This document shows, in pieces, positions 32,117 through 60,003 of a stretch of DNA of 64,000 nt. The stretch covers positions 620,001-684,000 of the forward strand of contig NZ_JAFBBR010000001.1 in NCBI RefSeq assembly GCF_016907295.1. The letters are read 5' to 3'. Source of the stretch: Microbacterium dextranolyticum. Lineage in GTDB: Bacteria > Actinomycetota > Actinomycetes > Actinomycetales > Microbacteriaceae. The notes under the pieces were generated by a model. It saw nothing but the letters and a program-made list of their open reading frames with translations. It had not been told where the DNA came from and did not search any database. The translations under genes and the position numbers were made by a program. The stretch's first letter is position 1; the number at the start of each line of letters is the position of its first letter.

Positions 32117-32183
32117 CGAGACAAGACACCCGTGGCGAGACCGGATGCCAGGCATCCTGTCTCGGCGTGATCGTCCTGTCTCA
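32117..32183. repeat. 19-nt-period inverted-box element, CGAGACAGG family, copy 1 (2+2 boxes)
   Basis: Boxes at 32117 (CGAGACAAG) and 32136 (CGAGACCGG), 19 nt apart. An 11-nt loop follows, then inverted boxes CCTGTCTCG at 32156 and CCTGTCTCA at 32175, also 19 nt apart. Confidence 0.85.
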
Positions 32184-32263
32184 CGCGTGGCAAGCGGCGG
32201 CGACGCAGCGAGGCGCGCGGGGCTGGCGCTGGCGGCCGTGCTGGCGTGGCAGGGTATCCGGGG

Positions 32264-32330
32264 CGAGACAGGGCGTCTGTGGTGAGACAGGATGCCTGGC
32301 GCCCTGTTTCGGCGTGATCGTCTTGTCTCA
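32264..32330. repeat. 19-nt-period inverted-box element, CGAGACAGG family, copy 2 (2+2 boxes)
   Basis: Boxes at 32264 and 32283, an 11-nt loop, inverted boxes at 32303 (CCTGTTTCG) and 32322 (CTTGTCTCA). Paired changes such as GTTTCG are G-U compatible in RNA. A CTGGCGCTGGCGGCCGTG spacer joins the copies. Confidence 0.85.
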
Positions 32331-32411
32331 TGCGCCGCGTCGCGTGGCGAGCGGCGGGCGCGGCGCGGGGCTGGCGCTGGCGGCCGTGCTGGCGTGGCAG
32401 GGGATCCGGGG

Positions 32412-32497
32412 CGAGACAGGGGATCCGTGGCGAGACAGGATGCCTGGCATCCTGTCTCGGCGTGATCGTCTTGTTTCGGCGTGATCGTCCTGTCTCA
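32412..32497. repeat. 19-nt-period inverted-box element, CGAGACAGG family, copy 3 (2+3 boxes)
   Basis: Boxes at 32412 and 32431, an 11-nt loop, then three inverted boxes at 32451, 32470 and 32489, each 19 nt after the last. The right arm has gained one 19-nt unit. Confidence 0.85.
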
Positions 32498-32580
32498 CGC
32501 GTGGCAAGCGGCGGCGACGCGGCGCGGCGCGGCGCGGGGCTGGCGCTGGCGGCCGTGCTGGCGTGGCAGGGTATCCGGGG

Positions 32581-32666
32581 CGAGACAGGGCATCCGCGGC
32601 GAGACAGGGTATTCGTGGTGAGGCAGGATGCCTGGCGCCCTGTCTCGGCGTGATCGTCCTGTCTCG
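32581..32666. repeat. 19-nt-period inverted-box element, CGAGACAGG family, copy 4 (3+2 boxes)
   Basis: Three direct boxes at 32581, 32600 and 32619, an 11-nt loop, two inverted boxes at 32639 and 32658. Here the left arm has the extra unit. A GGCGCGGCGAGACGC-type low-complexity stretch leads from it to coaA. Confidence 0.85.
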
Positions 32667-32772
32667 CGCGTGGCGCGGCGCGGCGAGGCGGCGTGGCGAG
32701 ACGCGGCGCGGCGAGACGCGGCGCGGCGCAGCAGCGCGCCGCAGCGCGAGGCTGGCGGCTAGAGTGGGCGCG

Positions 32773-33720
32773 ATGTCCACCGAAGACGCGACGACCGACG
32801 TCGCCTCGCTGTACCGCGAGGTCGACCGAGCCGAGTGGGCGGCCCTCGCCCCCGGCATCCCGGCCCCTCTCACCGAGACCGAGGTCGTGCAGCTGCGCGG
32901 CATCGGCGACCGCCTCGACCTCACCGAGGTGCGCGAGGTGTACCTGCCGCTGAGCCGGCTGCTGTCGACGTACGCCGAGAACACGAAGCGACTCGGCGCC
33001 GAGACCTCCGCGTTCCTGCGCGAGCCCGACACGACGACTCCCTTCGTCGTCGGCGTCGCCGGCTCGGTCGCCGTCGGAAAGTCGACCATCGCGCGCCTGC
33101 TGCGCGAGCTCATGAGCCGGTGGCCCGGCACGCCCCGTGTCGAGCTGGTCACCACCGACGGGTTCCTGTACTCCAACGACGAGCTCGAGCGCCGCGGCAT
33201 CATGCACCGCAAGGGGTTTCCCGAGTCGTACGATCGGCGCGCCCTGGTGCGCTTTCTCACCGACGTGAAATCCGGTGCCCCCGAAGCGCGCGCCCCGTTC
33301 TACTCGCACATGCGGTACGACATCATCCCCGACGCCCTCGTCACCGTGCGCCGCCCCGACGTCGTCATCGTCGAGGGGTTGAACGTGCTCTCACCACCCC
33401 CGACGCCCAACGACGTCGCGGTCAGCGACCTGTTCGACTTCTCGATCTACGTGGATGCCGACGAGGCCGACATCGCCCAGTGGTACGTCGACCGCTTTCT
33501 CGCGCTCCGCCAAGGCGCGTTCTCGAACCCGAGCTCGTTCTTCAGAGTGTTCGCCGAGCTGTCGGACGCCGAAGCGGTCGACACCGCGATGGGGTACTGG
33601 AACGACATCAACCTGCCGAACCTGCGCGAGAACGTCGCCCCGACACGGCACCGGGCGACCCTCGTGCTGAACAAGGCCGCCGACCACACCGTCGAGAGCG
33701 TGCTGCTGCGCAAGCTCTGA
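32773..33720 (+). CDS. coaA: Type I pantothenate kinase
   Basis: Phosphorylates pantothenate, the first step of coenzyme A synthesis. It has 315 residues, matching the family. The P-loop is GVAGSVAVGKST at 94-105; further blocks are LVTTDGFLYSND, RRGIMHRKGFPESYD and VIVEGLNVL. I chose the ATG at 32773; the frame stays open upstream only through the repeat array, which is not protein-like. The repeat elements end about 100 bp before the start, so its promoter must lie in or next to them. Confidence 0.95.
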   Translation: MSTEDATTDVASLYREVDRAEWAALAPGIPAPLTETEVVQLRGIGDRLDLTEVREVYLPLSRLLSTYAENTKRLGAETSAFLREPDTTTPFVVGVAGSVAVGKSTIARLLRELMSRWPGTPRVELVTTDGFLYSNDELERRGIMHRKGFPESYDRRALVRFLTDVKSGAPEARAPFYSHMRYDIIPDALVTVRRPDVVIVEGLNVLSPPPTPNDVAVSDLFDFSIYVDADEADIAQWYVDRFLALRQGAFSNPSSFFRVFAELSDAEAVDTAMGYWNDINLPNLRENVAPTRHRATLVLNKAADHTVESVLLRKL

Positions 33721-33835
33721 CGCCGCTGTCAGCGGTGCCCGCCGCCCGACCCGCCGCCCGCCCCACTGGCCGGTGCGGCATTTTCTCCAGGTTTGTCAGG
33801 CATCCGCACAAACCCCCGAGACTACCCTGGGGACT

Positions 33836-35698
<1,863 letters not shown>

Positions 35699-35747
35699 CC
35701 GCGGGGCCGGGCCCGGGGGAGCGGAAACGCGGGGATAGGCTGGGGGG

Positions 35748-36104
35748 ATGATCGTCGGTATCGGCGTCGACCTGGTCGACATCCCACGATTCGAGCGTTC
35801 CCTGGAGCGCACGCCCCGGCTCGCCGAGCGGCTGTTCGCCCCGGCGGAGCGCGCGCTCAAGCCGCACTCGCTCGCCGCGCGCTACGCCGCGAAAGAGGCC
35901 CTGATCAAGGCTCTCGGCGGCTCGGACGGCGTGCACTGGACCGAGATCGAGATCGCCTCCGAGCCGAGCGGGCGCCCCGTCTTCTCGCTCTGCGGCGAGA
36001 CGTCGGCGACGGTGGATGCCCGGGGCATCACCGCCCTGCACCTCTCCCTCAGCCACGACGCGGGACTCGCGACGGCCTACGTCGTGGCGGAGGCATCCGC
36101 ATGA
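35748..36104 (+). CDS. acpS: Holo-[acyl-carrier-protein] synthase
   Basis: Transfers 4'-phosphopantetheine from CoA to acyl carrier protein. It has 118 residues, the usual length for AcpS. The N-terminal GIGVDLVDIPRFE carries the metal-binding Asp; RYAAKEALIKALG holds the catalytic Glu/Lys region; LSLSHDAGLATAYVV ends the domain. Preceded by GCTGGGGGG. It overlaps alr by four bases (ATGA). Confidence 0.93.
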   Translation: MIVGIGVDLVDIPRFERSLERTPRLAERLFAPAERALKPHSLAARYAAKEALIKALGGSDGVHWTEIEIASEPSGRPVFSLCGETSATVDARGITALHLSLSHDAGLATAYVVAEASA

Positions 36105-37225
36105 GCCGTCTGCCCGCCGGAGTGCTGCGCGAAGCACTGATCGACACCACCGCCATCACCGAGAACGTGCGGCACCTGCGGCGCCTCACCGACTCGCAGG
36201 TCATCGCCGTCGTCAAGGCCGACGGGTACGGACACGGCGCCGTGCGGTCGGCGGTCGCGGCCCTCGCGGGAGGTGCGAGTCGGATCGGCGTCTCGGACAT
36301 CACCGAGGCCCTCGCCCTGCGCGCCGCGGGCATCGACGCCCCGATCTTCGCCTGGCTGCACGCCCCCGGTGCCTCGTTCGTCGAGGCCGCCGCGCAGCGG
36401 ATCGAACTGGGCATCTCGAGCATGGCGCAGCTGCAGGCCGCGGCCGACGCGGCATCGCCCGACGTGCCCGTCGGCGTGCACCTGAAAGCCGAGACCGGCC
36501 TCGGCCGCAACGGCATCGCGCCTGCCGAGCTGCCGGCGGTGTTCGCCGAGGCGGCACGGCTCGAGCGGATCGGGCGGCTGCGCGTCATCGGCATCTTCAG
36601 CCACCTCTCCAACACGACCGTCGACGACGACCGGGCCGCCGTGGCGCGGTTCCGCGAGGCGCTCGCGCTCGCCGCGTCGGTCGGACTCGAACCCGAATTG
36701 CGGCACATCGCCGCCTCGCACGCGGCGATCGACCTGCCCGAGGCCCGGTTCGGGTGCGTGCGCCTCGGTCTCGCCATCTACGGGCTGTCGCCGTTCGCCG
36801 ACCGGACGTCGGCCGACCTGGGCCTGCACCCCGCGATGACCCTGCGCGGTGCCGTGGCCGCCGTGCGCCGCGTTCCGGCCGGCCAGGGCGTCTCGTACGG
36901 GTACCTGCACCGCGCCGAGACCGAGACGACCCTCGCCCTCGTGCCCCTCGGCTACGCCGACGGCGTGCCGCGCGCCGCCTCGTCGGGGGCGGCGGTGCGC
37001 ATCGCCGGCGAGACCTTCCCGGTCGCCGGGCGCATCGCCATGGACCAGTTCGTCGTCGACGTCGGCGACCACGAGGTCGCGGTCGGCGACGCCGCCGTGC
37101 TGTTCGGCGATCCGACTCTCGGCGACCCCGCGGTCGAGGTGTGGGCGGATGCCGCCGACACCGTCAACTACGAGGTCGTCACCCGCATCGGTCCGCGCGT
37201 CCCGCGGCGCGAGGTCGAGCGGTGA
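36101..37225 (+). CDS. alr: Alanine racemase
   Basis: Interconverts L- and D-alanine for peptidoglycan. It has 374 residues, PLP-dependent. The PLP lysine is K39 in VVKADGYGHG; HLKAETGLGRNGI and ASHAAIDLPEARFGCVRLG belong to the barrel; the C-terminal domain has the catalytic Tyr in VSYGYLHRAE and PVAGRIAMDQFVVDVG. It overlaps acpS, so the two are coupled. About 155 bp of GC-rich sequence without a supported gene separate it from tsaE. Confidence 0.95.
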   Translation: MSRLPAGVLREALIDTTAITENVRHLRRLTDSQVIAVVKADGYGHGAVRSAVAALAGGASRIGVSDITEALALRAAGIDAPIFAWLHAPGASFVEAAAQRIELGISSMAQLQAAADAASPDVPVGVHLKAETGLGRNGIAPAELPAVFAEAARLERIGRLRVIGIFSHLSNTTVDDDRAAVARFREALALAASVGLEPELRHIAASHAAIDLPEARFGCVRLGLAIYGLSPFADRTSADLGLHPAMTLRGAVAAVRRVPAGQGVSYGYLHRAETETTLALVPLGYADGVPRAASSGAAVRIAGETFPVAGRIAMDQFVVDVGDHEVAVGDAAVLFGDPTLGDPAVEVWADAADTVNYEVVTRIGPRVPRREVER

Positions 37226-37379
37226 CACCGCGCGCCGCCGGCGCTCGCGGCGGTGCGCGTCGGAGCGCTGCGCTGGACGGCTGCGCCCTCGACGGGCCCG
37301 GCTTCGACGGGCCGGCCGTGCGCCGGAATGCGCGCGCCGCGGCATCCGTTCTCTTCTGCGGCAGAGAAGGAGGCGCACG

Positions 37380-37889
37380 ATGACGGGACTCGATGCCTTC
37401 GTCGGCGAACGCGAGGTGGCATCGGCCGGCGACATGGAGGCGCTCGGCCGCGACCTGGGAGCGGCGCTCGGCGCCGGCGATCTGGTCGTGCTGACCGGGC
37501 CCCTCGGCGCAGGCAAGACGACGCTGACCCGCGGGATCGCCGAGGCGCTCGGCGTCCGCGGGCGCGTGCAGAGCCCGACCTTCGTGATCGCTCGCACGCA
37601 TCCGTCGCTGGGCGACGGACCGGCCCTCGTCCACGTCGACGCCTACCGGCTCGGCACCGACGGCGAGCTCGACGACCTCGACATCGATTTCGCGCATTCC
37701 GTCGTGATCGCCGAGTGGGCCGCCCCGTTCGCCGCCGCCGTCGCCGACCACTGGTGGGAGGTCGAGATCGACCGGGGCTGGTCGGGCACCGGCGTCGACA
37801 ACGCCTGCGGCACGGCGGGGCACCATGTCGCCGACATGGAGGATGCCGCGCCGCGCCTGGTCACGATCACCCGGCGCTCCCGCTCCTGA
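37380..37889 (+). CDS. tsaE: tRNA threonylcarbamoyladenosine biosynthesis ATPase TsaE
   Basis: The ATPase that resets the TsaB-TsaD complex during t6A37 modification of ANN-decoding tRNAs. It has 169 residues. The P-loop is GPLGAGKTT (40-48), followed by VQSPTFVIARTHP, LVHVDAYRLG and VVIAEWAAP. The C-terminal part is slightly extended (VDNACGTAGHHVADMEDA). The ATG at 37380 has an excellent site, AAGGAGG, upstream. It begins the tsaE-tsaB-rimI-tsaD run. Confidence 0.93.
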   Translation: MTGLDAFVGEREVASAGDMEALGRDLGAALGAGDLVVLTGPLGAGKTTLTRGIAEALGVRGRVQSPTFVIARTHPSLGDGPALVHVDAYRLGTDGELDDLDIDFAHSVVIAEWAAPFAAAVADHWWEVEIDRGWSGTGVDNACGTAGHHVADMEDAAPRLVTITRRSRS

Positions 37890-37955
37890 CCCGCTTCTTT
37901 TCCGCTCCGCGCTGACGCGGGGGACGGCAGAAACGGGGGAGATACGCTGGGGAGC

Positions 37956-38636
37956 GTGATTGTTGGCATCGACACCTCGCTCGGCACGGCCGTCGCCGTC
38001 GTCGAAGACGACGGGGTCGTGCGCGCCGAGGCATCCAGCGAGAACCCGCTCGCGCACGCCGAAGTCATCGGCACGCTGCTGCAGAACGTGCTCGCCGGCG
38101 CCGCACACGGCCCGGTCGGGGCGACGACGGCCGCCACGCCGGTCGAGGTGACGCACGTCGCGGCGGGCATGGGACCCGGGCCCTTCACGGGACTGCGCGT
38201 CGGCATCGCCGCGGCACGCGCCTTCGCCCTCGGCCGGAGTGTTCCCGTGGTCGCCGTGCCGAGCCACGACGCGGCCGCCCTCGCCCTGCTGATGCACGCC
38301 GCCCTCGCCGACCCCTTCGACGACGCGTCGCGATTCGCGGTCGTCACCGACGCACGCCGGCGCGAGTACGCCTACTCGGTCTACGACGGGCTCGACGACG
38401 ACGGCATCCCCGTGCGCGTCGCCGGCCCCGCCCTCGCCCCGCGCGACGACGTCGACGCCGTGCTCGCGGGCCTCGGCGCCGAGCGGCGCGACGTCACCGC
38501 GATCCCCGCGGCGATGGTCGCCGCCCTCGCCGCGCGCGCGATCGCCGCGGGCCGCGCGCTCACCGGCGACGAGCCCCTCTACCTGCGCGCCCCCGACGTC
38601 ACCCTGCCCGCCGCGTCGAAGCGGGTGAGCGCATGA
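37956..38636 (+). CDS. tsaB: tRNA threonylcarbamoyladenosine biosynthesis protein TsaB
   Basis: The non-catalytic partner of TsaD in t6A synthesis. It has 226 residues with an ASKHA-fold start, [19 protein letters not shown], then [18 protein letters not shown] and [20 protein letters not shown], which are standard for TsaB. GTG start with GGGGAG upstream. Overlaps rimI by four bases (ATGA). Confidence 0.93.
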
Positions 38637-39136
38637 CGCTGCGCACCGCGACCGCCGGCGACCTCACCGCGATCATGGACCTCGAGCGCACGTCCTTTCC
38701 GACGGATGCCTGGAGCGAGCCCATGATGCAGAGCGAGCTCGCCTCGCCGCACGGGCGGTACCTCGTCGACGTCGAGGCGGGCCGCGTGATCGGCTACGGC
38801 GGCGTGCGCGCCGTGCAGGGCAGCGCCGACGCCGACATCCAGACCATCGCGCTCGCCGAGGCCGCGCGTGGGCGCGGGCGGGGGCGCACCCTGCTGCGGG
38901 CGCTGCTCGAGGTCGCCCGCGAGCGCGGCGCGCGCGAGATGTTCCTCGAGGTGCGCGCCGACAACCCCGTCGCCACGGCGCTCTACGCCTCGGAGGGCTT
39001 CGTCGAGATCGGACGTCGCCCGCGGTACTACCAGCCCGACGACGTCGACGCCGTCATCATGACCCTCGACCTCGTCGCCTGGGCCGCGCACCGCGCCGCG
39101 GACGGCACCGCCCTCGACGCAGGAGCCTGCTCATGA
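38633..39136 (+). CDS. rimI: Ribosomal protein S18-alanine N-acetyltransferase family (RimI)
   Basis: A 167-residue GNAT acetyltransferase. Acetyl-CoA motif A reads [17 protein letters not shown], followed by [20 protein letters not shown] and [18 protein letters not shown], the RimI signature. Its position between tsaB and tsaD, overlapping both by four bases, is the usual actinobacterial arrangement. The S18 substrate is by homology only. Confidence 0.9.
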
Positions 39137-40218
39137 GCGCCGCCGAACCCCTCGTCCTCGGCATCGAGACCAGCTGCGACGAGACGGGCATCGGGATCGT
39201 CCGCGGGCGAACGCTCCTCAGCAACACGATCGCCAGCTCGATGGACGAGCACGCCCGCTACGGCGGCGTCGTGCCCGAAGTCGCCGCCCGCGCGCACCTC
39301 GAGGCGCTGCAGCCGACGATCGAGGCCGCGCTCGCCGAGGCGGGCGTGGCCCTCGACGAACTCGACGCGATCGCCGTCACGAGCGGCCCCGGACTCGCCG
39401 GCGCCCTCATGGTCGGCGTCGGCGCGGCCAAGGCGCTCGCCGTCAGCCTCGGAAAGCCCCTCTACGCCGTCAACCACCTCGTCGGTCACATCGCCGCCGA
39501 TCTCCTCGCCGGCGACGAGGTCGAGTACCCGACGGTCGCCCTGCTCGTCAGCGGCGGGCACACCTCACTGCTGCTCGTGCGCGACCTCGTCTCCGACGTC
39601 GAGCTGCTCGGCGAGACGATGGACGATGCTGCGGGCGAGGCCTTCGACAAGATCGCCCGCATTCTCGGGCTGCCCTACCCCGGCGGGCCCCAGATCGACC
39701 GTGCCGCCGCCACCGGCGACCCGACCGCGATCCGCTTTCCGCGGGGGCTGTCCCGGGCATCCGACATGGCGGAGCACCGCTACGACTTCTCGTTCTCGGG
39801 GCTCAAGACCGCCGTCGCGCGCTGGGTCGAACAGGCCGAGGCCGCCGGCGGCGACGTCTCGATCGGCGACGTCGCCGCATCGTTCCGCGAGGCGGTCGTC
39901 GACGTGCTGGTGACGAAGGCGCTGGATGCCTGTGCCCGCCACGACGTGCCGCGCCTGCTGCTCGGCGGCGGCGTCATCGCCAACCGGCGTCTGCGCGAGG
40001 TCGCACTCGCCCGCGCCGAGGCTGCGGGCGTCGCCGTCCGGATCCCGCCGCTGAGTCTCTGCACCGACAACGGGGCGATGATCGCCGCGCTCGCGGCGCA
40101 GCTGATCATGAGCGGCCGGCGCCCCTCGACCCTCGCCTTCGGCGCCGACTCGACCCTGCCCGTCACCCAGATCCAGATCGCCGAGCAGCCGCCCGCGGGC
40201 CCCGGGGAGGCGCGGTGA
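39133..40218 (+). CDS. tsaD: tRNA N6-adenosine threonylcarbamoyltransferase
   Basis: The catalytic subunit that transfers threonylcarbamoyl to A37 of tRNA. It has 361 residues. Start [17 protein letters not shown]; metal ligands in the H-x-x-x-H of [16 protein letters not shown]-binding region [27 protein letters not shown]; and [12 protein letters not shown] with [11 protein letters not shown] at the end. Overlaps rimI (ATGA) and the next gene (GTGA). Confidence 0.96.
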
Positions 40219-40781
40219 GTCCGGAGGACGAGCGGATGAGGGTGGGCGTTCCCGGCGCGGCGCCGCAGGCTGACCCGGCCGGCGCTCCGACTGACGTGCC
40301 GGTACCCGCCCTGGCGGACACCGAGATGCCCGCCACGCCCGCCGCCTCCTCCGCTACCCCCGCCGATGCCCCGCGGATCGCGGCGCCCTCCGAGGATGTC
40401 GCGACGGCGCAGACCGTCGCTCTGCCCGGCGAGCATCGCGGCGGCTTCCGGCGCGAGCTGACCGAACCCGTGCCGGTGACCGCGTCGGTGCACACCGACC
40501 CGGGGTGGACGCCCGCGCCCGGCCCCGACGCTGTCGTGGCCCTGCCGTGGAGCGCGGCGTGGGCGCTCGCGTTCGGCGTGGTCGGCCTCATCGTGGCCAT
40601 CTTCGTCGGGTGGGGGTTCCCGCTCGGGCTCGTCGGTGTCGTGCTCGCGATCGTGGCGCTCCGCCGCCCGTGGGAATCGCGGCAGACGGCCGTGTGGGCG
40701 CTGTGCCTCAGCGTCGCCTCGCTCGTCTACAGCGCCGGCTGGCTGTGGTGGGCGTCGACGCAGGGGCCGCTGTTCGGCTGA
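40215..40781 (+). CDS. DUF4190-type membrane protein
   Basis: A 188-residue protein. The first 110 residues are Pro/Ala-rich and disordered-looking. The C-terminal 80 hold two or three hydrophobic segments ([50 protein letters not shown]), the DUF4190 pattern. Function unknown. GTG start overlapping the tsaD stop, so it is coupled to the t6A cluster. It converges on the methyltransferase gene. Confidence 0.75.
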
Positions 40782-40817
40782 GCGCCCCCGTTCCCGCGCG
40801 GTGCGTCGGGTCTCTCG

Positions 40818-42023: not shown

Positions 42024-42073
42024 CCGGCCAGCCTACGGGCGCGTGGCCTGCGCCCATCGACGGTGTCGCGCGG

Positions 42074-42100
42074 CTGGCACTCGCGTTGCACGAGTGCCAG
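42074..42100 (+). promoter_or_regulatory. CIRCE operator 1 (HrcA site) over the groS -35 box
   Basis: CTGGCACTC-N9-GAGTGCCAG is a perfect 9-9-9 inverted repeat with the CIRCE core (GCACTC-N9-GAGTGC). It overlaps TTGCAC (42086-42091), which with TAGACT (42109-42114) and a 17-bp spacer forms the groS promoter. Confidence 0.85.
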
Positions 42101-42114: not shown

Positions 42115-42119
42115 TGCCA

Positions 42120-42146: not shown

Positions 42147-42197
42147 TCAGTCTTTTCATGTCAACGGCATAACGCCCACGCCAGAAAGAGGTAAACC

Positions 42198-46285: not shown

Positions 46286-46359
46286 TACTCCGCAGTCTGT
46301 CGCGTACTCCGCATCCGTCCGCGGCATCGGGTGCGGAGTACGTGAGATTCTGCGGAGTT
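46286..46359. repeat. 19-nt-period inverted-box element, TACTCCGCA family, copy A
   Basis: Boxes TACTCCGCA at 46286 and 46305, an 18-nt loop, inverted boxes TGCGGAGTA at 46332 and TGCGGAGTT at 46351. Spacing 9-10-9-18-9-10-9, total 74 nt. A GGATGCCGTGGCATCC hairpin follows at 46378. Confidence 0.9.
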
Positions 46360-46511: not shown

Positions 46512-46617
46512 TACTCCGCAGCTTGTCACCAACTCCGCACACGTCTAGGGCATTGGGTGCGGAGTACGTGAGATTCTGCGGAGTTCGCGCGGCCGAGACA
46601 GCGGATTCTGCGGAGTT
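46512..46617. repeat. 19-nt-period inverted-box element, TACTCCGCA family, copy B with extra box
   Basis: Boxes at 46512 and 46531, an 18-nt loop, inverted boxes at 46558 and 46577. A fifth box at 46609 lies 32 nt further on, inside a duplicated GCGGATTCTGCGGAGTTCG unit. A GGATGCCGCGGCATCC hairpin follows at about 46637; it could end livF transcription. Confidence 0.88.
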
Positions 46618-49576: not shown

Positions 49577-52770
<3,194 letters not shown>

Positions 52771-52776
52771 GGCCGT

Positions 52777-52815
52777 GCGGCTGCGGCTGCGGCTGCGGCT
52801 GCGGCTGTGGCTGTG
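52777..52815. repeat. (GCGGCT)n hexanucleotide repeat after guaB
   Basis: Five perfect GCGGCT copies, then GTGGCT variants, starting six bases past the guaB stop. Confidence 0.85.
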
Positions 52816-52863
52816 GTGCGACCGTGGCCGTGGTATCCCGGGTCGCCTGCCGTGTGCGGGACG

Positions 52864-52937
52864 AACTCCGCATGATGTGACGAACTCCGCATGCCCTCGT
52901 GTGATTGGGTGCGGAGTTCGTGGCTTTCTGCGGAGTT
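52864..52937. repeat. 19-nt-period inverted-box element, TACTCCGCA family, copy C
   Basis: Boxes AACTCCGCA at 52864 and 52883, an 18-nt loop, inverted boxes TGCGGAGTT at 52910 and 52929. Total 74 nt. In this copy the variable base is A/T-swapped in all four boxes together (AACTCC/GGAGTT). Confidence 0.9.
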
Positions 52938-53017
52938 CGTGCGGTGGTGGTGTTGCTGAGGTGAGGGTCCGCGACGTGAGGCGTCATCCTGGCATCCCGC
53001 TGGCGTGCGGCGTGACG

Positions 53018-53091
53018 AACTCCGCATGATGTGACGTGCTCCGCATCTTTTCGTGTGATCGGGTGCGGAGTTCGCGGCTTTCTGCGGAGCT
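53018..53091. repeat. 19-nt-period inverted-box element, TACTCCGCA family, copy D
   Basis: Boxes at 53018 (AACTCCGCA) and 53037 (TGCTCCGCA), an 18-nt loop, inverted boxes at 53064 (TGCGGAGTT) and 53083 (TGCGGAGCT). It lies upstream of the DUF559 gene. Confidence 0.88.
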
Positions 53092-53185
53092 CGTCTCCTC
53101 CTCCCCAGGCGGCGAGTGGCGCGGGTTGTCCACGGATGGCGCGGTTGCGGCATCCGTGAGCGCGACGAGTCGACAGGATGCCCGT

Positions 53186-54031
53186 ATGCACCTCGTCCCC
53201 GTCGCCGATCGCCTACGCGGCACGGCCGCGCATCGCGGGCAGCTGCGGGACGAGGGATACCGTGATGCCTCGCTACGAGCGGCGGTTCGTGACGGCGCGA
53301 TCGAGGTGCATCGCCGTTCCTGGTTCGTCTCGGCGGACGCGCCCGCCGATCTGCGCGAAGCGGCGCGCCGCGGCGGCAGGATCACCTGCACGACGCTCGC
53401 GCGGATGCGCGGGTGGTGGATGCCGGACGGTGTCGGCGACGACGTGCATCTGCACTTTCCGCCAGGATCGACGGGCCCGCGCACACCATGGGGCGGGGTT
53501 GCGCACTGGTCCCGCCCCGTCGCGCCGGTCGGACGGGCACTCATCGCGACCGTCGAGGACGCCCTCGCGCACATCGCTGTGTGCCGCCCTCCGGCAGAGG
53601 CACTCGTGCTGTGGGAATCCGCGGCCCGGATGGAGCGGCTGGCGCCGGAGGCGCTGCGCGCGATCTCGTGGCCGTCGCGTGCGGCCGTCGAGCTTGCAGC
53701 GCAGGTCACCGGGCTCGCGGACTCGGGGCTCGAGGTGCTCGTCTGCCGCCCCTTGCGGCGGTTGCGGGTGCAGGTCCGGCAACAGGCCGTGGTGGCCGGA
53801 AAGCCCGTCGATGTGCTCGTCGGGGAGTGGCTCGTCGTCCAGATCGACGGCTGGGCGCATCATTCCTCGTCGGCGCAGCGCTCGAAGGACATCGCCCACG
53901 ACGCGGAGCTGCGGCTGCGCGGCTACACCGTTCTGCGCTTCTCGTACGCGCAGGTGGTGCATGACGCGCTCGAGGTCGAGCGCACGATCCGCCGCGCTCT
54001 CGCCGCGGGGCTGCACGCGCGGCCATCCTGA
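53186..54031 (+). CDS. DUF559 domain protein with AbiEi-like N-terminus (putative nuclease-fold)
   Basis: A 281-residue protein. The N-terminal 90 residues resemble the winged-helix AbiEi-type antitoxin domain common in actinobacteria (LRDEGYRDASLRAAVRDGAI, then RRSWFVSAD). The C-terminal 100 are a DUF559/Vsr-like PD-(D/E)xK fold: KPVDVLVGEWLVVQIDGWAH, then RSKDIAHDAELRLRGYTVLR and FSYAQVVHD. No partner toxin gene is next to it. The role is unknown; a nuclease or DNA-binding function is inference. It is flanked by repeat elements C and D upstream and E downstream. Confidence 0.75.
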   Translation: MHLVPVADRLRGTAAHRGQLRDEGYRDASLRAAVRDGAIEVHRRSWFVSADAPADLREAARRGGRITCTTLARMRGWWMPDGVGDDVHLHFPPGSTGPRTPWGGVAHWSRPVAPVGRALIATVEDALAHIAVCRPPAEALVLWESAARMERLAPEALRAISWPSRAAVELAAQVTGLADSGLEVLVCRPLRRLRVQVRQQAVVAGKPVDVLVGEWLVVQIDGWAHHSSSAQRSKDIAHDAELRLRGYTVLRFSYAQVVHDALEVERTIRRALAAGLHARPS

Positions 54032-54071
54032 GCTCGGGGGCGATGTGTGCGGCGTGCCCGGTCGGGTGGGC

Positions 54072-54145
54072 GGCGCCGCAGGATGTCGCGTACTCCGCAT
54101 CCGATCGGGGGGAGGGGTGCGGAGTACGCGACGATCCGCGGAGTT
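54072..54145. repeat. 19-nt-period inverted-box element, TACTCCGCA family, copy E (outer boxes diverged)
   Basis: Inner boxes TACTCCGCA at 54091 and TGCGGAGTA at 54118 are perfect, with the 18-nt loop. Outer boxes at 54072 (GGCGCCGCA) and 54137 (CGCGGAGTT) are degenerate but at the exact 19-nt offsets. It lies between two convergent genes. Confidence 0.8.
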
Positions 54146-54174
54146 CGTGCGGGTCAGGTCTGCGCCGCGGCGGC

Positions 54175-55635
54175 TCAGTCCGTGACGGGCGTGGCGGATG
54201 CCGTGGCGCGCCCCGACGGCAGCAGGAGGGCCGCCACGACTCCGACGAACAGGACAGCCGCTCCGGTGAAGACGGCGGGGCGCGCGGCATCCACGTACAT
54301 GTCGGGTCGCAGCTGTCCGCCGGCGCCCACGAAGATCGCCGTCATCACGGCCGTGCCGAGGGCGAGTCCGATCTCGCGCACGGTGGAGTTGACCCCGGAT
54401 GCCTTGGCGTGGTCGACCACGCCGAGGGTCGCGAGCAGCGCCGTCGCCATCGGCGCGAAGACGAGTCCCATGCCGACCCCGGACAGGACGAACGGCGCGA
54501 TGAGGGAGGGGTAATCGAGGTCGGTCGACATCGCGAGGCCGATCCAGAGCAGCCCCACACCCTGCAGCAGCAGCCCGACGGTGAGCAGGGCGCGGGTGCC
54601 GACGCGCGGCGCGATCAGGCCGGCGACCGGTGCGACGAACATCGGCGCGAGGGTCCACGGCGTCGTCTGCAGGGCGGCCTCGAGCGGCGTGGATCCCTGC
54701 ACCACCTGCAGGTACTGGATGAGCAGGAAGATGGCGCCCATCGCCCCGAAGCTGAAGAGGAAGCCGACGATGTTCGTGAGCGAGAACGAGCGGTCTCGGA
54801 ACAGGCGCAGCGGCACGAGAGGGGCCCGCCCCCGCGCCTGCCATGCGATGAATCCGACGAGCAGGAGGGTTCCGGCCACGAGTTCGCCCACCACCGAGAG
54901 CGACGACCACCCATCGTCGTTGCCGCGGACGATCGCGTGGACGATGGCGAGGACTCCGCCGGCCGTCAGGATCGCCCCGAGGACGTCGATGCGGGTGCGC
55001 TCACCGAACTGATTGCGCAGCGCGAAGAAGGCGAGGGGCATCGCGACGATCGCGATCGGCACGTTGATCCAGAAGATCGCCTGCCAGTTCCACCCCTGCA
55101 TGATCGCGCCGCCGACGAGAGGACCGGCGGCGACCCCGAGCCCTGCGATGCCTCCCCAGAGGCCGATCGCCAGGGGACGCCGGGCCGGGGCAACGCCGCC
55201 CGAGATGAGCGCGAGCGACAGGGGCATGACACCGGCCCCGCCGAATCCCTGTACGGCGCGGGCGGCGATGAGCTGCCCCGGATCAGTGCTGAGGGCGGCG
55301 AGCACGGAGCCGACGCCGAAGATCGCGATGCCGGCGAGGAACACGGTGCGTCGCCCGAAGCGGTCGCCCAGCGCGGAGGCCACGAGGATCATCGACGCGA
55401 ACGCGAGCGTGTAGGCGTTCACGAACCACTGCAGCTGCTCGACGCTCGCGCCGAGTGTCTCGTGCAGCACGGGCAGCGCATTGGTCATGACGAGGTTGTC
55501 GAGGGTGGCCATGAACATGGGCACGGATGCCGCGGCGACGACGAGCCCGAAGGGGCGGCGGGGCATCGTGGCCGAGGCATCGGGCGGCGGCGCATCCGAT
55601 CGTATGGACGTCGTCGCAGTGAGCGTCTCGGTCAT
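54175..55635 (-). CDS. MFS transporter, DHA2 (14-TMS) drug efflux family
   Basis: A 486-residue membrane protein with about 14 hydrophobic segments. Family motifs: SVPMFMATLDNLVMTNALP in the first segment, WFVNAYTLAFASMIL, LGDRFGRRTVFLAGIAIFG (motif A), RAVQGFGGAGVMPLSLALI (motif B) and GPLVGGAIMQGWNWQAIFWI (motif C, drug/H+ antiporter). It probably exports hydrophobic compounds by proton antiport. The start at 55635 has AAGGGAGC upstream. It is divergent from a TetR gene and shares operators with it. Confidence 0.92.
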   Translation of the reverse strand: MTETLTATTSIRSDAPPPDASATMPRRPFGLVVAAASVPMFMATLDNLVMTNALPVLHETLGASVEQLQWFVNAYTLAFASMILVASALGDRFGRRTVFLAGIAIFGVGSVLAALSTDPGQLIAARAVQGFGGAGVMPLSLALISGGVAPARRPLAIGLWGGIAGLGVAAGPLVGGAIMQGWNWQAIFWINVPIAIVAMPLAFFALRNQFGERTRIDVLGAILTAGGVLAIVHAIVRGNDDGWSSLSVVGELVAGTLLLVGFIAWQARGRAPLVPLRLFRDRSFSLTNIVGFLFSFGAMGAIFLLIQYLQVVQGSTPLEAALQTTPWTLAPMFVAPVAGLIAPRVGTRALLTVGLLLQGVGLLWIGLAMSTDLDYPSLIAPFVLSGVGMGLVFAPMATALLATLGVVDHAKASGVNSTVREIGLALGTAVMTAIFVGAGGQLRPDMYVDAARPAVFTGAAVLFVGVVAALLLPSGRATASATPVTD

Positions 55636-55658
55636 CGCCGAGCTCCCTTCGCTTGGTT

Positions 55659-55708
55659 GTAATCGAATGATTACTTGTCGAAGGCGACTGTAGTAATCGA
55701 CTGATAAC
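55659..55708. promoter_or_regulatory. Two 16-bp inverted-repeat operators between efflux gene and tetR
   Basis: GTAATCGAATGATTAC at 55659-55674 and GTAATCGACTGATAAC at 55693-55708, 34 bp start to start. The first is a near-perfect palindrome and the second a close variant ending eight bases before the tetR start codon. They are the likely binding sites of the adjacent TetR protein and would control both divergent genes. Confidence 0.8.
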
Positions 55709-55716
55709 ATGTCAAC

Positions 55717-56343
55717 ATGAGTCCGATCGAGGCGACGGCGCCCGAGACCGCGCGGCGTATGAGTTCCGACGAGCGCCGCGAGCAGATCATCGAGGCGGCC
55801 CTCGCGGTGTTCGGCGCGCGCGGCTATGAGGGAACGACGACCGACGAGGTCGCCCGCCGCGCCGGCGTCAGCCAGCCCTACGTCGTGCGCCTGTTCGGAT
55901 CGAAGGAGAGCCTCTTCCTCTCGGCGCTGCAGCGGGCGATCGATGAAATGATGGACGCGTTCCGCGAGGCCCTGGCCGACGAGGCATCCGGCGAGCCCAT
56001 CGCGCGGCGGGTCGGGGATGCCTACATCGGCCTCTTGCGGGTGCGCGGGCTGCATCAGACGCTCTCTCACGCGTGGCTGCTGGGGTCGCACCCCGTGATC
56101 GGCCCGGCCGGACGTCAGGGATTCGCGCGGGTGTGGCGGATGTTCCGCGACGAAGCCGGCATGAGCGCCGAGGAGGCGCGAGTGTTCCTGGCCGAGGGCA
56201 TGCTCATCAACGTCATGATCGGCATGCGCATCGTCGACGACTACGGTTCCGATTCCGACATCACCGAACTCTTCCACTCGTGCTTCCCGACGAGCCTGCC
56301 CGAGGTGCTCGAGGTCGTGCCGCGCGGCGACGAACCGTGGTGA
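55717..56343 (+). CDS. TetR/AcrR family transcriptional regulator
   Basis: A 208-residue regulator. The N-terminal HTH is typical: REQIIEAALAVFGARGYEGT, TTDEVARRAGVSQPYVVRLF then GSKESLFLSALQRAI. The C-terminal ligand domain includes MIGMRIVDDYGSDSDI. The message is probably nearly leaderless, because the ATG lies just behind operator 2 and a TAACAT -10-like sequence. It likely represses the DHA2 gene and itself until a ligand binds. Confidence 0.92.
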   Translation: MSPIEATAPETARRMSSDERREQIIEAALAVFGARGYEGTTTDEVARRAGVSQPYVVRLFGSKESLFLSALQRAIDEMMDAFREALADEASGEPIARRVGDAYIGLLRVRGLHQTLSHAWLLGSHPVIGPAGRQGFARVWRMFRDEAGMSAEEARVFLAEGMLINVMIGMRIVDDYGSDSDITELFHSCFPTSLPEVLEVVPRGDEPW

Positions 56344-56404
56344 GCTGAGCGCGCGATAGTCTGGTCGGCTCTGCGCCGCCGTGGCCGGGGCGGAAGGACC
56401 CGCC

Positions 56405-58093
56405 GTGGGCTACATCGACATCGCCGCCGTCTCGTTCGTCCTGCCGGACGGGCGACCTCTGCTCGACGAGGTGACCTTCCGCGTGGCGGACGGCAAGACC
56501 ACCGCTCTGATCGGCCAGAACGGCGCGGGCAAGACGACCCTGCTGAAGATCGTCCGAGGCGAGCTCTCACCGCGGTCGGGGACCGTCACGATCGACGGCG
56601 GGCTCGGCGTCATGGACCAGTTCATCGGTCACGGCGAGGCCGGTCAGACCGTGCACGACCTGCTGATCGCTGTCGCACCGGGCCGCGTCGGCGCCGCCGC
56701 GCGGGAACTCGAGGATGCCGAGGCCGCCATCATCGAGCACGACGACCTCGACACGCAGATGCGCTACGCCGCCGCGCTGGCCGACTACGCCGAAGCCGGG
56801 GGATACGAGTACGAGACCGTCTGGGACACGTGCACGGTCGCCGCCCTCGGCATCCCTTTCGCGCGGGCACGGTTCCGCGACCTCGGCACCCTTTCCGGGG
56901 GAGAGCAGAAGCGACTCGCACTCGAGGCGCTCCTGCGCGGCCCCGATCAGGTGTTGCTGCTCGACGAGCCCGACAATTACCTCGACGTGCCCGGCAAGCG
57001 CTGGCTCGAGGAACGACTGCGCGAAACATCCAAGACCGTCCTCCTCGTCTCGCACGATCGCGAGCTGCTCGCACGGGCCGCCGATCGCATCGTCACGCTC
57101 GAGACGGGCGGCGCCGGGAGCACCGCCTGGGTGCACGGCGGAGGATTCGGCACCTACCACGCCGCGCGCGACGACCGGATGGCGCGACTCGACGAACTGC
57201 GCCGGCGGTGGGATGAGGAGCACGCCAAGCTCATCCGCTTCGTCGCCGACATGAAGGCGAAGGCCGCCGCCAGCGACGAGTTCGCGTCGCGCTATCGGGC
57301 GGCCCAGACTCGGCTGCGCCGGTTCGAAGAGGCCGGCCCGCCCGAGGAGCGTCCCCCCGCGCAGACCCTCGACGTGCGCCTGCGCGGCGCACGCACCGGC
57401 AAGCGCGCCGTCGTCGCCGAGCGGCTCGAGCTTACCGGGCTCATGCAGCCGTTCGACCTCGAGGTGTGGTTCGGCGATCGCATCGCCGTGCTCGGATCGA
57501 ACGGGTCGGGTAAATCGCACTTCCTGCGGCTGCTCGCCCGCGGTGGCACCGACCCCGACGGGCTGCTCGGCCACGTCACCGACATCGGTGCGGCGCTCGA
57601 TCCCGTCGCGCACACGGGGCGGGCCGTGCTCGGCGCACGGGTTGCTCCCGGCTGGTTCGCGCAGACCCACCGGCATCCGGAATACACCGGGCGCTCGCTC
57701 CTGGACATCCTGCACCGCGGCGACGACCGGAGGCCCGGCATGCCGCGGGATGCGGCCAGCTCGGCCCTCGACCGCTACGGCCTCGTCCGGCAGGCCGAGC
57801 AGGCCTTCGACAGTCTGTCGGGCGGGCAGCAGGCCCGGTTCCAGGTGCTGCTGCTCGAGCTCTCCGGGGCGACGCTGCTGCTGCTCGACGAGCCCACCGA
57901 CAACCTCGACCTCGTCTCGGCCGAGGCGCTGGAGGATGCGCTGCAGCGCTTCGAGGGGACCGTCCTCGCGGTGACCCACGACCGGTGGTTCGCGCGCTCG
58001 TTCGATCGCTTCATCGTGTTCGGCTCGGACGGACGCGTCGTCGAGACCGACGAGCCCGTGTGGGACGAGAAGCGGGTCACCCGGGCCCGGTGA
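56405..58093 (+). CDS. ABC-F family ATP-binding protein
   Basis: A 562-residue soluble protein with two ABC ATPase domains and no membrane segment. First domain: Walker A IGQNGAGKTTLLKIV, signature LSGGEQKRLALEALL, Walker B VLLLDEPDNYLD. A charged linker follows (LRRRWDEEHAKLIRFVADM). Second domain: VLGSNGSGKSHFLRLLA, LSGGQQARFQVLLLEL, LLLDEPTDNLDLVS. ABC-F proteins act on ribosomes; some protect against ribosome-targeting antibiotics and others are housekeeping, and the sequence alone does not say which. GTG start with GGAAGGAC upstream. It may be co-transcribed with tetR, 61 bp upstream. Confidence 0.9.
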   Translation: MGYIDIAAVSFVLPDGRPLLDEVTFRVADGKTTALIGQNGAGKTTLLKIVRGELSPRSGTVTIDGGLGVMDQFIGHGEAGQTVHDLLIAVAPGRVGAAARELEDAEAAIIEHDDLDTQMRYAAALADYAEAGGYEYETVWDTCTVAALGIPFARARFRDLGTLSGGEQKRLALEALLRGPDQVLLLDEPDNYLDVPGKRWLEERLRETSKTVLLVSHDRELLARAADRIVTLETGGAGSTAWVHGGGFGTYHAARDDRMARLDELRRRWDEEHAKLIRFVADMKAKAAASDEFASRYRAAQTRLRRFEEAGPPEERPPAQTLDVRLRGARTGKRAVVAERLELTGLMQPFDLEVWFGDRIAVLGSNGSGKSHFLRLLARGGTDPDGLLGHVTDIGAALDPVAHTGRAVLGARVAPGWFAQTHRHPEYTGRSLLDILHRGDDRRPGMPRDAASSALDRYGLVRQAEQAFDSLSGGQQARFQVLLLELSGATLLLLDEPTDNLDLVSAEALEDALQRFEGTVLAVTHDRWFARSFDRFIVFGSDGRVVETDEPVWDEKRVTRAR

Positions 58094-58160
58094 GCAGGCC
58101 GCGCTGAGCGGGCGTGGGTGCGCGCGTGTTCGTGTGTCGGGCGGCGGGTTGGGGGTCGCG

Positions 58161-58234
58161 TACTCCGCAGAATGTGACGAACTCCGCACCTGAAGCGGCG
58201 AACGGGTGCGGAGTACGTGGAATTCTGCGGAGCT
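58161..58234. repeat. 19-nt-period inverted-box element, TACTCCGCA family, copy F
   Basis: Boxes at 58161 (TACTCCGCA) and 58180 (AACTCCGCA), an 18-nt loop, inverted boxes at 58207 (TGCGGAGTA) and 58226 (TGCGGAGCT). Confidence 0.9.
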
Positions 58235-58335
58235 GGTGACGTGTGCCGGGGCTCGTGGGGCATGGCCGCGCGGGTATCGGTGCGGGTGCGGGCGTGGCTG
58301 AGCGGATGTGGAGGTCGCGGTGTGGGCGGGTCGCG

Positions 58336-58409
58336 TACTCCGCAGGATGTGACGAACTCCGCACCTGAAGCGGCGGACGGGTGCGGAGTACGTGGAATTC
58401 TACGGACTC
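58336..58409. repeat. 19-nt-period inverted-box element, TACTCCGCA family, copy G
   Basis: Boxes at 58336 and 58355, an 18-nt loop, inverted box at 58382; the last box at 58401 (TACGGACTC) is decayed. Nearly identical to copy F over about 90 nt, so the pair is a local duplication. Both lie between convergent genes. Confidence 0.88.
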
Positions 58410-58485
58410 GGTGACGTGCGCCGGGGCTTGTGGGTCGGTCAGACAGACAGTCCGCACTCGTCGGACGACCGCGCGACCGAGAGCG

Positions 58486-59619
58486 TCAGACGGATGCCAG
58501 GCGGAACGCCTCGGCGGCCCGCGCCGACGGGTCGAGCGCGAGCGCGGCGAGCGTCGCGCCGACACCGGGCGCGAACTTGAAGCCCTGGCCCGAGAACCCC
58601 GCGCCCACGACGATGCGCTCCACCCGGTCGAGCACGAACGCCTCGGTCGGCGTCGACGTGTACGTGCACGAGATCGGCACCGCCGTGTCGGGGTCGAGCC
58701 CGGGCATCCACTCCCGCACGTAGTCGCGCAGCTCATGCTGCAGCACCGGCCGGTGCGGACGGCGGTCGGGATCGACCTCGTCGCCGATGCCGTGGAAGCC
58801 GACCTTGATCCCCTCGCCGGGCGTCGGCATGCCGTACACGTTCGACGGTTGCGAGCCGGGTGTGACGAAATGGTTGAACGACAGCCACGGGCCGGCGACG
58901 AACGGCGTGAAGTGCGCCGGCGTCTCTTCCGTCACGCGAAGCGGCGGCAGAGGGATGCCCGGTCCCGAGCCCGATCCGAGCGCCGGTCCCAGCAGTGACG
59001 AGGTCCACGCGCCCGCGGTCACGACGACCACGTCGGCGCGGAGCGTCCCGGCATCCGTCACGACATCGACGCCGTCTGCGTCGGGGGACAGGGCGCGCGC
59101 CGGGATGCTCCACCGGACCTCGCCGCCGCCGGCCGTGATGCGGCGCTCGAGCTCGCGGATCGCCGCGGCGGCGCGGGCGACCCCGGCGTCGGGGGAGTGG
59201 AGGACGGTGTCTTCGAAGCGCATGCCCGGCCAGCGTCGCGCGGCGTCGGCTCCGGTGAGCAGCTCGGCGGGGATGCCGCGGGCGGTCAACCCGTCGGCGA
59301 TCCCGGCGAGGCTCGTGGCCGAGCCGCTGCCGAGCGCCGCGCCCCCGCCGTGCGAGACGAGACCGTGCAGACGCAGCAGCGGCTCGCCGTCGACGTCGCC
59401 GAGGGCATCCCAACCTTCGCGCGCGAGCGCGAGCAGGTCGAGGTAGTGCGCCTCGCCGTAAGCGTTGTTGAAGTTGCGCGTCTCGCCGTGGGACGCGCCC
59501 TCGTGGTGGCCGCGCGCGAACCGGTCGATCACGACGGGGCGTTCTCCTCGTCGAACGAGCTGCCATGCCGCGGCAAGCCCCATGATCCCGCCGCCGATGA
59601 CCACGATGCGCTGGGCCAT
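58486..59619 (-). CDS. FAD-dependent oxidoreductase (sarcosine oxidase / N-methyltryptophan oxidase type)
   Basis: A 377-residue DAO-fold flavoenzyme. The dinucleotide-binding start is IVVIGGGIMGLAAAWQLV; then RFARGHHEGASHGETRNFNN, typical of monomeric sarcosine and N-methyl-tryptophan oxidases; RADVVVVTAGAWTSSLL; and VGAGFSGQGFKFAPGVGATL at the C-terminus. Members oxidise N-methylated amino acids, giving hydrogen peroxide and formaldehyde; the substrate here is unknown. I did not find the covalent-FAD Cys of some members. GGAGGAGG precedes the ATG. Confidence 0.88.
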   Translation of the reverse strand: MAQRIVVIGGGIMGLAAAWQLVRRGERPVVIDRFARGHHEGASHGETRNFNNAYGEAHYLDLLALAREGWDALGDVDGEPLLRLHGLVSHGGGAALGSGSATSLAGIADGLTARGIPAELLTGADAARRWPGMRFEDTVLHSPDAGVARAAAAIRELERRITAGGGEVRWSIPARALSPDADGVDVVTDAGTLRADVVVVTAGAWTSSLLGPALGSGSGPGIPLPPLRVTEETPAHFTPFVAGPWLSFNHFVTPGSQPSNVYGMPTPGEGIKVGFHGIGDEVDPDRRPHRPVLQHELRDYVREWMPGLDPDTAVPISCTYTSTPTEAFVLDRVERIVVGAGFSGQGFKFAPGVGATLAALALDPSARAAEAFRLASV

Positions 59620-59782
59620 CCGTCCTCCTCCGTCGAACCCATCCTGCCGTCTTACGTCGGCGTCGGGTCAGCGCCGGTCATACGGCGACGCACGCGGGAG
59701 ATCTGCGCAGGCGGCGCGGCGCGGCGCAGGCGTCCGAGGTTGCGCGCCGGCCGCATACGCAGGCCGCACTCGGCGGCTCCCT

Positions 59783-59849
59783 CGAGAAACCGTCGCCGTC
59801 GCGAGAAACGCGCGCCGCGGTGGTTTCTCGCGGTGGATGTGGTTTCTCG
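59783..59849. repeat. 19-nt-period inverted-box element, CGAGAAAC family, copy H
   Basis: Boxes CGAGAAAC at 59783 and 59802, a 13-nt loop, inverted boxes GTTTCTCG at 59823 and 59842. All four boxes are perfect. The 59620-60085 gap between the divergent oxidase and guaB3 genes holds this and copy I and no supported gene. Confidence 0.9.
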
Positions 59850-59936
59850 CGCTCATGGTCGCGGACTTCCGGGTCGGCGCGGGCGGCTTGGCCGGCTTGG
59901 CCGGCTCGCGCGGCTCGGGGTACGGGGTGGTGCACG

Positions 59937-60003
59937 TGAGAAACCATCGCCGTCGCGAGAAACACGTGCCGCGGTGGTTTCTCGCGGTGGATGTGGTTTC
60001 TCG
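59937..60003. repeat. 19-nt-period inverted-box element, CGAGAAAC family, copy I
   Basis: Boxes TGAGAAAC at 59937 and CGAGAAAC at 59956, a 13-nt loop, inverted boxes at 59977 and 59996. The right arm is the same as in copy H, including the GGTGGATGT spacer. Confidence 0.9.

What the first reader, a model, noticed from the sequence alone, without database searches (positions are those of the whole stretch)
32117..60003. Three unrelated box sequences share the same 19-nt-period nested inverted architecture
The WACTCCGCA elements (46-58 kb), the CGAGACAGG elements (32 kb) and the CGAGAAAC elements (59.8 kb) have different boxes and loops (18, 11 and 13 nt), yet each has direct boxes exactly 19 nt apart and inverted boxes exactly 19 nt apart. 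I found no named class with this layout. It may be a new class of repeat in which a shared factor or mechanism reads the 19-nt spacing while the box sequence diversifies, as in operator/repressor or element/mobilising-enzyme pairs.
Basis: partly seen in the sequence, partly recalled or inferred. Interest (0 to 1): 0.88.

Follow-up and report, generated by a model that had tools for sequence, protein, structure and literature searches.

The report
Repeats paired with AbiEi-nuclease genes
Three families of short spaced DNA repeats scattered through this Microbacterium-like genome each match the repeats on both sides of their own gene for a DNA-binding nuclease, which points to an undescribed kind of repeat-and-enzyme pair.

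Summary
In a sequence-agnostic scan of the window, all 8 exact (k=7) four-box elements fall at period 19, none at 29 other periods. A 400-kb sample of the genome gives 13 against 0; 6 of the 13 are the window's own.

Each family has a cognate gene in the same genome, flanked on both sides by elements with its box: A (ACTCCGCA) window gene 53186-54031; C (CGAGAAAC) genome 2663897; B (CGAGACAGG, degenerate copies) a paralogue of C's gene at 590704.

Predicted structures join an AbiEi-antitoxin-like DNA-binding part to a Vsr/EDxHD-type nuclease domain. Of 81 A-type and 50 C-type genes examined, 60 and 44 have a period-19 element within 400 nt, with gene-specific boxes. Box similarity follows protein similarity, mainly that of the AbiEi-like part.

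B and C are not unrelated: their proteins are 58% identical.

Inferred, not shown: that the enzyme binds, nicks and spreads the elements. It works most like REPIN/RAYT but its enzyme is not an HUH transposase. No report appeared in the open-access listings I saw.

The parts
53186..54031 (+). Cognate gene of family A: 281-aa AbiEi-like DNA-binding part (about 1-175) plus Vsr/EDxHD-type nuclease domain (about 177-281; DUF559/MTES_1575)
   Evidence: Pfam PF04480 32.3 bits over cut-off 20.6; PF18741 33.6 bits under cut-off 38.2; AlphaFold2 model pLDDT 88.3; PDB matches 6y8q and 3r3p; E183, H226, D235 and D239 in 81 of 81 and D209 in 80 of 81 homologues
52864..52937 (.). Family A element, outer of two upstream of the cognate gene
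53018..53091 (.). Family A element, inner, about 95 nt upstream of the cognate gene
54072..54145 (.). Family A element just downstream of the cognate gene (outer left box weak: 2 mismatches)
46286..46359 (.). Family A element, dispersed
46512..46585 (.). Family A element, dispersed; extra inverted box at 46609-46617
58161..58234 (.). Family A element between convergent genes (ABC-F and DAO); absent from the 6 relatives examined that keep this gene order
58336..58409 (.). Family A element, near-tandem copy of the previous one (175 bp away)
32117..32183 (.). Family B element 1 (loop 11)
32264..32330 (.). Family B element 2 (loop 11)
32412..32497 (.). Family B element 3 (loop 11, one extra inverted box in 19-nt register)
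32581..32666 (.). Family B element 4 (four perfect boxes with loop 30 = 11+19, degenerate extra box inside)
59783..59849 (.). Family C element 1 (loop 13), between divergent DAO and guaB3
59937..60003 (.). Family C element 2 (loop 13)

Best explanation
Each box family is the recognition sequence of one dedicated protein, an AbiEi-like DNA-binding domain fused to a Vsr/EDxHD-type nuclease, whose gene carries elements on both sides. The AbiEi-like domain reads the box (one monomer per box), and the fixed 19-nt step and mirror layout place four monomers on an element of about 80 bp. The nuclease then nicks or cuts at or near the element, and repair or copying of the cut end spreads copies to other intergenic sites. 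The gene stays put and is inherited vertically; the elements disperse and duplicate locally. As protein and box drift together, new families arise with the same spacing. Shown: the layout, the gene-element pairing in three families of this genome and in many relatives, the covariation of box with protein, intact nuclease-type residues, and element-free orthologous sites. Inferred: binding, cutting and copying. The functional logic is that of REPIN/RAYT, with a different enzyme and a different repeat.
For: Pairing for all three window families: A, C, B with degenerate flanking elements. Flank scan in 390-nt zones, up to 3 mismatches: A-type 48 of 80 upstream and 50 of 80 downstream at period 19 (39 both), other periods 13-27 0-3 of 80, zones 710-1100 nt away 0 of 81 and 0 of 77; C-type 35 of 49 and 33 of 48 (26 both), other periods 0-2, far zones 2 of 50 and 2 of 48 (the discovery genes are included). 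Upstream distance is nearly constant (median 105 nt A, 112 nt C) and the downstream element lies near the stop codon (median +23 and -1). Other Microbacteriaceae genera: 5 of 25 upstream, 9 of 25 downstream, other periods 0-1. Mantel: A n=60 rho 0.552, C n=44 rho 0.594, none of 999 permutations as high. Partial Mantel: AbiEi-like part 0.366 and 0.533 (p 0.001 each), nuclease part 0.187 (p 0.002) and -0.13 (p 0.937). Box TCTGAAGG, read beside genes of G042 and G107, proves dispersed: 18 of 366 genomes have it, G107 (22) and G042 (17) most. Element-free sites: 6 relatives keep ABC-F/DAO/guaB3 with short gaps and no elements; 7 more have ABC-F beside guaB3 and no elements. The most similar dispersed copies share 0.81-0.87 over the element with chance-level flanks.
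Against: No binding or cutting was measured. No target-site duplication or exact insertion boundary was found, and relatives are too diverged for base-level empty sites. Dispersed copies are at most 0.86-0.87 identical, so no recent jump is visible; the closest copies are local duplications. 21 of 81 A-type and 6 of 50 C-type genes show no element, and in the A-type genes without one the nuclease residues are just as conserved. Some genomes carry arms without a close cognate found (G033 with 20 C arms; G058 with 11; G046 with 5 A arms, an 81% complete draft); 10 of 33 genomes with a close C-type protein lack the exact C box; G101 has a 72% identical partial A-type match (residues 92-278) and no A arm. 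Up- and downstream elements have no consistent relative orientation (42 direct, 28 inverted, 1 tie). AbiEi proteins are known autorepressors, so a pure operator role fits the binding part.
Confidence: 0.62

Rival explanations
1. The elements are operators: the AbiEi-like protein represses its own promoter and a regulon of dispersed sites, and the nuclease domain serves another purpose (defence or repair). The 19-nt step is the geometry of cooperative monomers.
For: AbiEi of S. agalactiae binds two 23-bp inverted repeats in its promoter, and Rv2827c binds four (PMC7319586, passages). The upstream element sits a nearly constant ~105 nt from the aligned start codon. The AbiEi-like part carries most of the box covariation.
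Against: A matching element also sits downstream of the gene in 50 of 80 and 33 of 48 cases. Elements sit between convergent genes (54.1 kb and 58.2 kb), where no promoter is expected. A and C have tens of arms in this genome, often in near-tandem pairs. The nuclease residues are nearly invariant.
Confidence: 0.22
2. A defence or addiction module: the elements mark self DNA or are sites at which the nuclease is held inactive, and DNA without them, or without the bound state, is attacked.
For: AbiEi is the antitoxin of an abortive-infection system (PMC7319586, passages), and an AbiEi-nuclease fusion joins both roles in one chain. 17 of 19 C-type proteins match a PADLOC AbiEi model.
Against: No AbiEii toxin partner beside the A or C genes (guaB, MFS, TrkA, ProC); one neighbour of the B gene is unidentified. 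The A gene sits at a housekeeping locus, not a defence island. Nothing tested phage phenotypes.
Confidence: 0.08
3. Transcribed hairpins (terminators, mRNA ends or a structured RNA); the enzyme association is incidental.
For: All 12 strands folded (6 elements, both strands) are far more stable than shuffles (z -3.5 to -9.1). C-element spacers are more complementary within than between elements (6.32 against 5.19, 0 of 500 shuffles).
Against: Any inverted repeat folds. In family A the spacers are no more complementary than shuffles (6.19 against 6.37). No Rfam family at the gathering score. Terminators do not explain a fixed 19-nt direct repeat or covariation with a protein.
Confidence: 0.05
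4. REP/REPIN elements moved by a RAYT (HUH tyrosine transposase) elsewhere in the genome.
For: Dispersed, palindromic, intergenic, several families per genome, as for REPINs (PMC3116915 and PMC3733652, passages).
Against: The genes bracketed by the elements encode AbiEi-Vsr-like proteins, not HUH transposases. GTAG or CGTC tags are not seen in the consensus arms of A and C. A RAYT search of the genome was not run.
Confidence: 0.03

Closest known systems
REPIN/RAYT (REPtrons)
   Same: Short palindromic repeats dispersed between genes; a single-copy, rarely transferred enzyme gene flanked by matching repeats; several distinct repeat-enzyme pairs in one genome (PMC3116915, PMC3733652, passages).
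   Different: RAYTs are HUH/Y1 transposases paired with REP hairpins that end in GTAG. Here the enzyme is AbiEi-like plus a Vsr/EDxHD-like nuclease and the repeat is a four-box tetrad with 19-nt steps.
AbiEi antitoxin operators (type IV toxin-antitoxin)
   Different: No AbiEii toxin partner next door (A, C); a nuclease domain is fused; elements also lie downstream and in tens of copies; boxes about 9-13 nt at 19-nt steps rather than 23-bp repeats.
EDxHD homing endonucleases (I-Bth0305I) and Vsr endonuclease
   Different: Not in an intron or intein; flanked by multi-copy elements. For C, Foldseek alone gives 3r3p only E 0.61.
MITEs
   Same: Small non-autonomous palindromic repeats next to related elements that carry an enzyme gene (recalled; mentioned in PMC3733652, passages).
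   Different: No transposase of a known class, no target-site duplication found, enzyme gene at a conserved locus.

Membership tests
REPIN/RAYT | Enzyme gene flanked by the repeats it is paired with | tested here: met
REPIN/RAYT | Enzyme is an HUH/Y1 tyrosine transposase | tested here: not met
   Pfam, PADLOC and structure give AbiEi-like plus Vsr/EDxHD-like nuclease
REPIN/RAYT | Repeat is a short hairpin ending in a GTAG (or CGTC) tag, in inverted doublets | tested here: not met
   Consensus arms of A and C are two direct boxes 19 nt apart; no such tag seen in the consensus
REPIN/RAYT | Repeats shown to move | not testable with these tools
   one genome per species held; no strain pairs
AbiE type IV toxin-antitoxin | AbiEi-fold antitoxin | tested here: met
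AbiE type IV toxin-antitoxin | Adjacent AbiEii nucleotidyltransferase toxin | tested here: not met
   Neighbours of A and C genes are guaB, MFS, TrkA, ProC; B gene has M24 on one side and unidentified ORFs on the other
AbiE type IV toxin-antitoxin | Autoregulation through promoter inverted repeats | not testable with these tools
   element ~105 nt upstream is compatible
Homing endonuclease (EDxHD) | EDxHD/Vsr-like catalytic domain | tested here: met
Homing endonuclease (EDxHD) | Gene lies in, and interrupts, its own target site (intron, intein or intergenic homing) | tested here: inconclusive
   Gene lies between elements at a conserved guaB locus; no intact target allele identified
MITE | Terminal inverted repeats with target-site duplication | tested here: inconclusive
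   No duplication stood out in 56 A and 81 C elements, but exact ends are unknown

The most novel reading that the evidence does not exclude
A new class of selfish or domesticated repeat system: AbiEi-fold antitoxin domains fused to Vsr/EDxHD nucleases act as dedicated mobilising enzymes of four-box repeats, with the 19-nt step fixed by the protein and the box free to diversify, an evolutionary counterpart of REPIN/RAYT built from an antitoxin and a repair/homing nuclease.
Probability: 0.5. Interest if true: 0.92.

Novelty: categorically new. Interest (0 to 1): 0.84.

Why it matters
It gives a function-linked partner to a large group of proteins annotated only as DUF559, 'very-short-patch-repair endonuclease' or nothing (the C-type protein has no Pfam match). 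Relatives of the C-type protein occur in 169 of 198 genomes searched in the genus, and of the A-type protein in 142 of 198 relatives, though not all with elements. The set supplies dozens of natural protein/box pairs with graded divergence, which makes the question of how an enzyme and its DNA repeat change specificity together directly testable, and it may be a second, independent case of the REPIN/RAYT way of life.

Tried and rejected

Literature: searched open-access PMC text. I saw listings (capped: 15 of 9,788 papers, 15 of 40, 8 of 11, 10 of 1,001, 8 of 1,789; two searches found none) and passages of five papers (PMC3710099, PMC7319586, PMC3733652, PMC3116915, PMC3943268). None of what I saw joins DUF559/Vsr/AbiEi proteins with such repeats; subscription papers were not searched.

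Limits of counts: the C cut-off of 330 bits for the Fisher test was chosen after seeing the list, and 9 matchless genomes are not named, so 20 of 165 could be up to 29. The A Fisher test counts full-length matches only; with the partial match in G101 it would be 3 of 4 against 5 of 194. The 80 named A-type loci are the best 80 of 233; the 50 C-type loci are 30 best plus 20 that I picked from the listing.
Full report
OBSERVATION. The window (genome positions 620001-684000 of a single 3.18-Mb contig) holds three box families. A four-box element is two direct boxes 19 nt apart, a loop, and two inverted boxes 19 nt apart. A scan that knows nothing of the box finds 8 such elements at k=7, all at period 19, none at the other 29 periods; a 400-kb sample gives 13 and 0 (6 of the 13 from the one stretch inside the window), and 0 in shuffles. 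Family A has 30 exact arms in the genome, C has 43, B has 3 by its exact pattern, all at 32 kb, although degenerate B-type elements also flank its gene. Spacing between ACTCCGCA boxes is 19 in 30 of 33 pairs with a 1-30 nt spacer. Loop length is nearly constant within a family (A 18 in 43 of 56 and C 13 in 69 of 81 distinct elements from all loci held, several genomes together; the others are 17, or a family loop plus 19 from an extra box).

THE PARTNER OF FAMILY A. Gene 53186-54031 lies between two A elements upstream and one downstream. Among 198 genomes, its two best matches outside this one (80% and 72% identity) are in G080 and G018, the two with the most A arms after the window's own (24 and 17); the next two full-length matches (61-62%, G013 and G010) are in genomes with none. 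A arms occur in 8 of 198 genomes (6 of them of the same genus, this one included). All 3 genomes with a full-length protein over 70% identical have them, and 5 of 195 others, with 1-5 arms each (Fisher p 4e-5); against this, G101 has a partial match (residues 92-278, 72%) and no arm. In both relatives an A element lies about 100 nt upstream of the gene.

THE PARTNERS OF C AND B. C elements bracket a gene at 2663897-2664880 (two upstream, three downstream). Its protein has no Pfam match. C arms occur in 60 of 366 genomes. Of the 198 genomes searched with the C protein, 33 have a match of 330 bits or more, and 23 of those 33 have C arms, against 20 of the 165 others (Fisher p 4e-11; hand tally). 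Exceptions run both ways: G033 has 20 C arms and G058 has 11 without a close cognate found. A paralogue 58% identical to the C protein, at 590704-591684, is flanked on both sides by degenerate four-box elements (2-3 mismatches over 32 positions) with CGAGACAGG boxes downstream and CGAGACACG and CGAGACAGG boxes upstream: the partner of B. So all three families of the window have their own gene in the same genome.

GENERALITY. I scanned 390-nt zones beside homologues without knowledge of the box, up to 3 mismatches. A-type genes (the window's plus 80 named loci; 80 have long enough zones) show period-19 elements upstream in 48 and downstream in 50 (both in 39); every other period from 13 to 27 gives 0-3; zones 710-1100 nt away give 0 of 81 and 0 of 77. 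C-type genes (50) show 35 of 49 and 33 of 48 (both in 26); other periods 0-2; far zones 2 of 50 and 2 of 48. Within 400 nt, 60 of 81 and 44 of 50 have at least one. In the 25 best homologues from other Microbacteriaceae genera, 5 upstream and 9 downstream. Boxes differ from gene to gene: ACTCCGCA, CTTCGCAG, TCTCGGAG, TTCTGAAGG, GATTCGGA, CTTCTGCGGC, CAACAGAT, GAAGGAGA, GAGAAACC, CGAGACGG, AGGTTGAG, GCATAAAC and more. A box read beside genes of G042 and G107 (TCTGAAGG) was then searched in 366 genomes: 18 have it, led by G107 (22 arms) and G042 (17), far more than the flanking elements alone; then G391 (11), G069 (10), G348 (6), G033 (3); 12 others have 1-2. In G069 one copy lies 165 nt upstream of an A-type gene.

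COVARIATION. Box similarity rises with protein identity (Mantel rho 0.552 for 60 A-type, 0.594 for 44 C-type genes; highest of 999 permutations 0.144 and 0.301). Holding the other domain constant, the AbiEi-like part carries most of it (0.366 and 0.533, p 0.001 each) and the nuclease part less or nothing (0.187, p 0.002; -0.13, p 0.937). Of 24 A-type genes scoring 290 bits or more, 22 lie beside guaB (the flank of one of the other two is too short to tell), so this lineage sits at one syntenic locus while its box has drifted from ACTCCGCA to CTTCGCAG and CTTCGGAG-like forms.

DISPERSAL. The most similar copies far apart in the genome share 0.81-0.87 over the 67-72-nt body, with flanks near chance; near-tandem copies share up to 0.94 (A) and 0.99 (C). 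Of 14 regions of relatives that I fetched, six keep the order ABC-F, DAO, guaB3 with short gaps and no element where this genome has two A and two C elements; seven have ABC-F next to guaB3 without elements; one (G018) has its A gene and elements beside DAO. This shows gain here or loss there, not its mechanism. No target-site duplication was seen.

MECHANISM. Precedent: AbiEi monomers bind 23-bp inverted repeats, two in abiE and four in rv2827c (PMC7319586, passages); I-Bth0305I dimerises on a target of nearly 60 bp (PMC3943268, passages). I infer four monomers on one element, held by their AbiEi-like parts at 19-nt steps, and a nuclease action that leads to copying. REPIN/RAYT is the nearest way of working (PMC3116915 and PMC3733652, passages), but the defining HUH transposase is not what the flanked gene encodes. 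An operator role is the main rival and could coexist. The paper that named the MTES_1575 nuclease domain (PMC3710099, passages) calls it a Vsr-type REase fused to winged helices; the two passages seen mention no repeats.

Noticed in passing
genome G426 (genus scan): The reversed control pattern GGAAGTCT-N11-GGAAGTCT occurs 31 times (22 and 9) in this one genome, apparently another period-19 family met by accident.
   Followed up: no
window 58161-60003; G000 510468-514357 and 2922282-2923796: A and C elements sit within a few kb of each other at several places, as if both families prefer the same intergenic regions.
   Followed up: no
L202:2924-4225 and 3124-3966: The ORFs on the far side of the B cognate gene have no Pfam match; whether either is a partner gene is open.
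   Followed up: partly
window about 32040-32110: Short tandem run of GTGCGTCT/GTGCGTCC units directly left of the B array.
   Followed up: no
L234 (record titled Planococcus sp. APC 4015): Carries an A-type gene beside a guaB 91% identical to the window's; the record is probably a mislabelled or contaminated Microbacteriaceae sequence.
   Followed up: no
G000:C1 1374970, 1452540 and loci L163, L165: Further DUF559 paralogues of this genome without detectable period-19 elements; another A-type paralogue (2539674) has GAATCGGA elements.
   Followed up: partly
loci L136 and L149: Exact four-box hits at period 26 on both sides of one A-type gene and at period 25 beside another; possibly chance, possibly a lineage with another spacing.
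   Followed up: no
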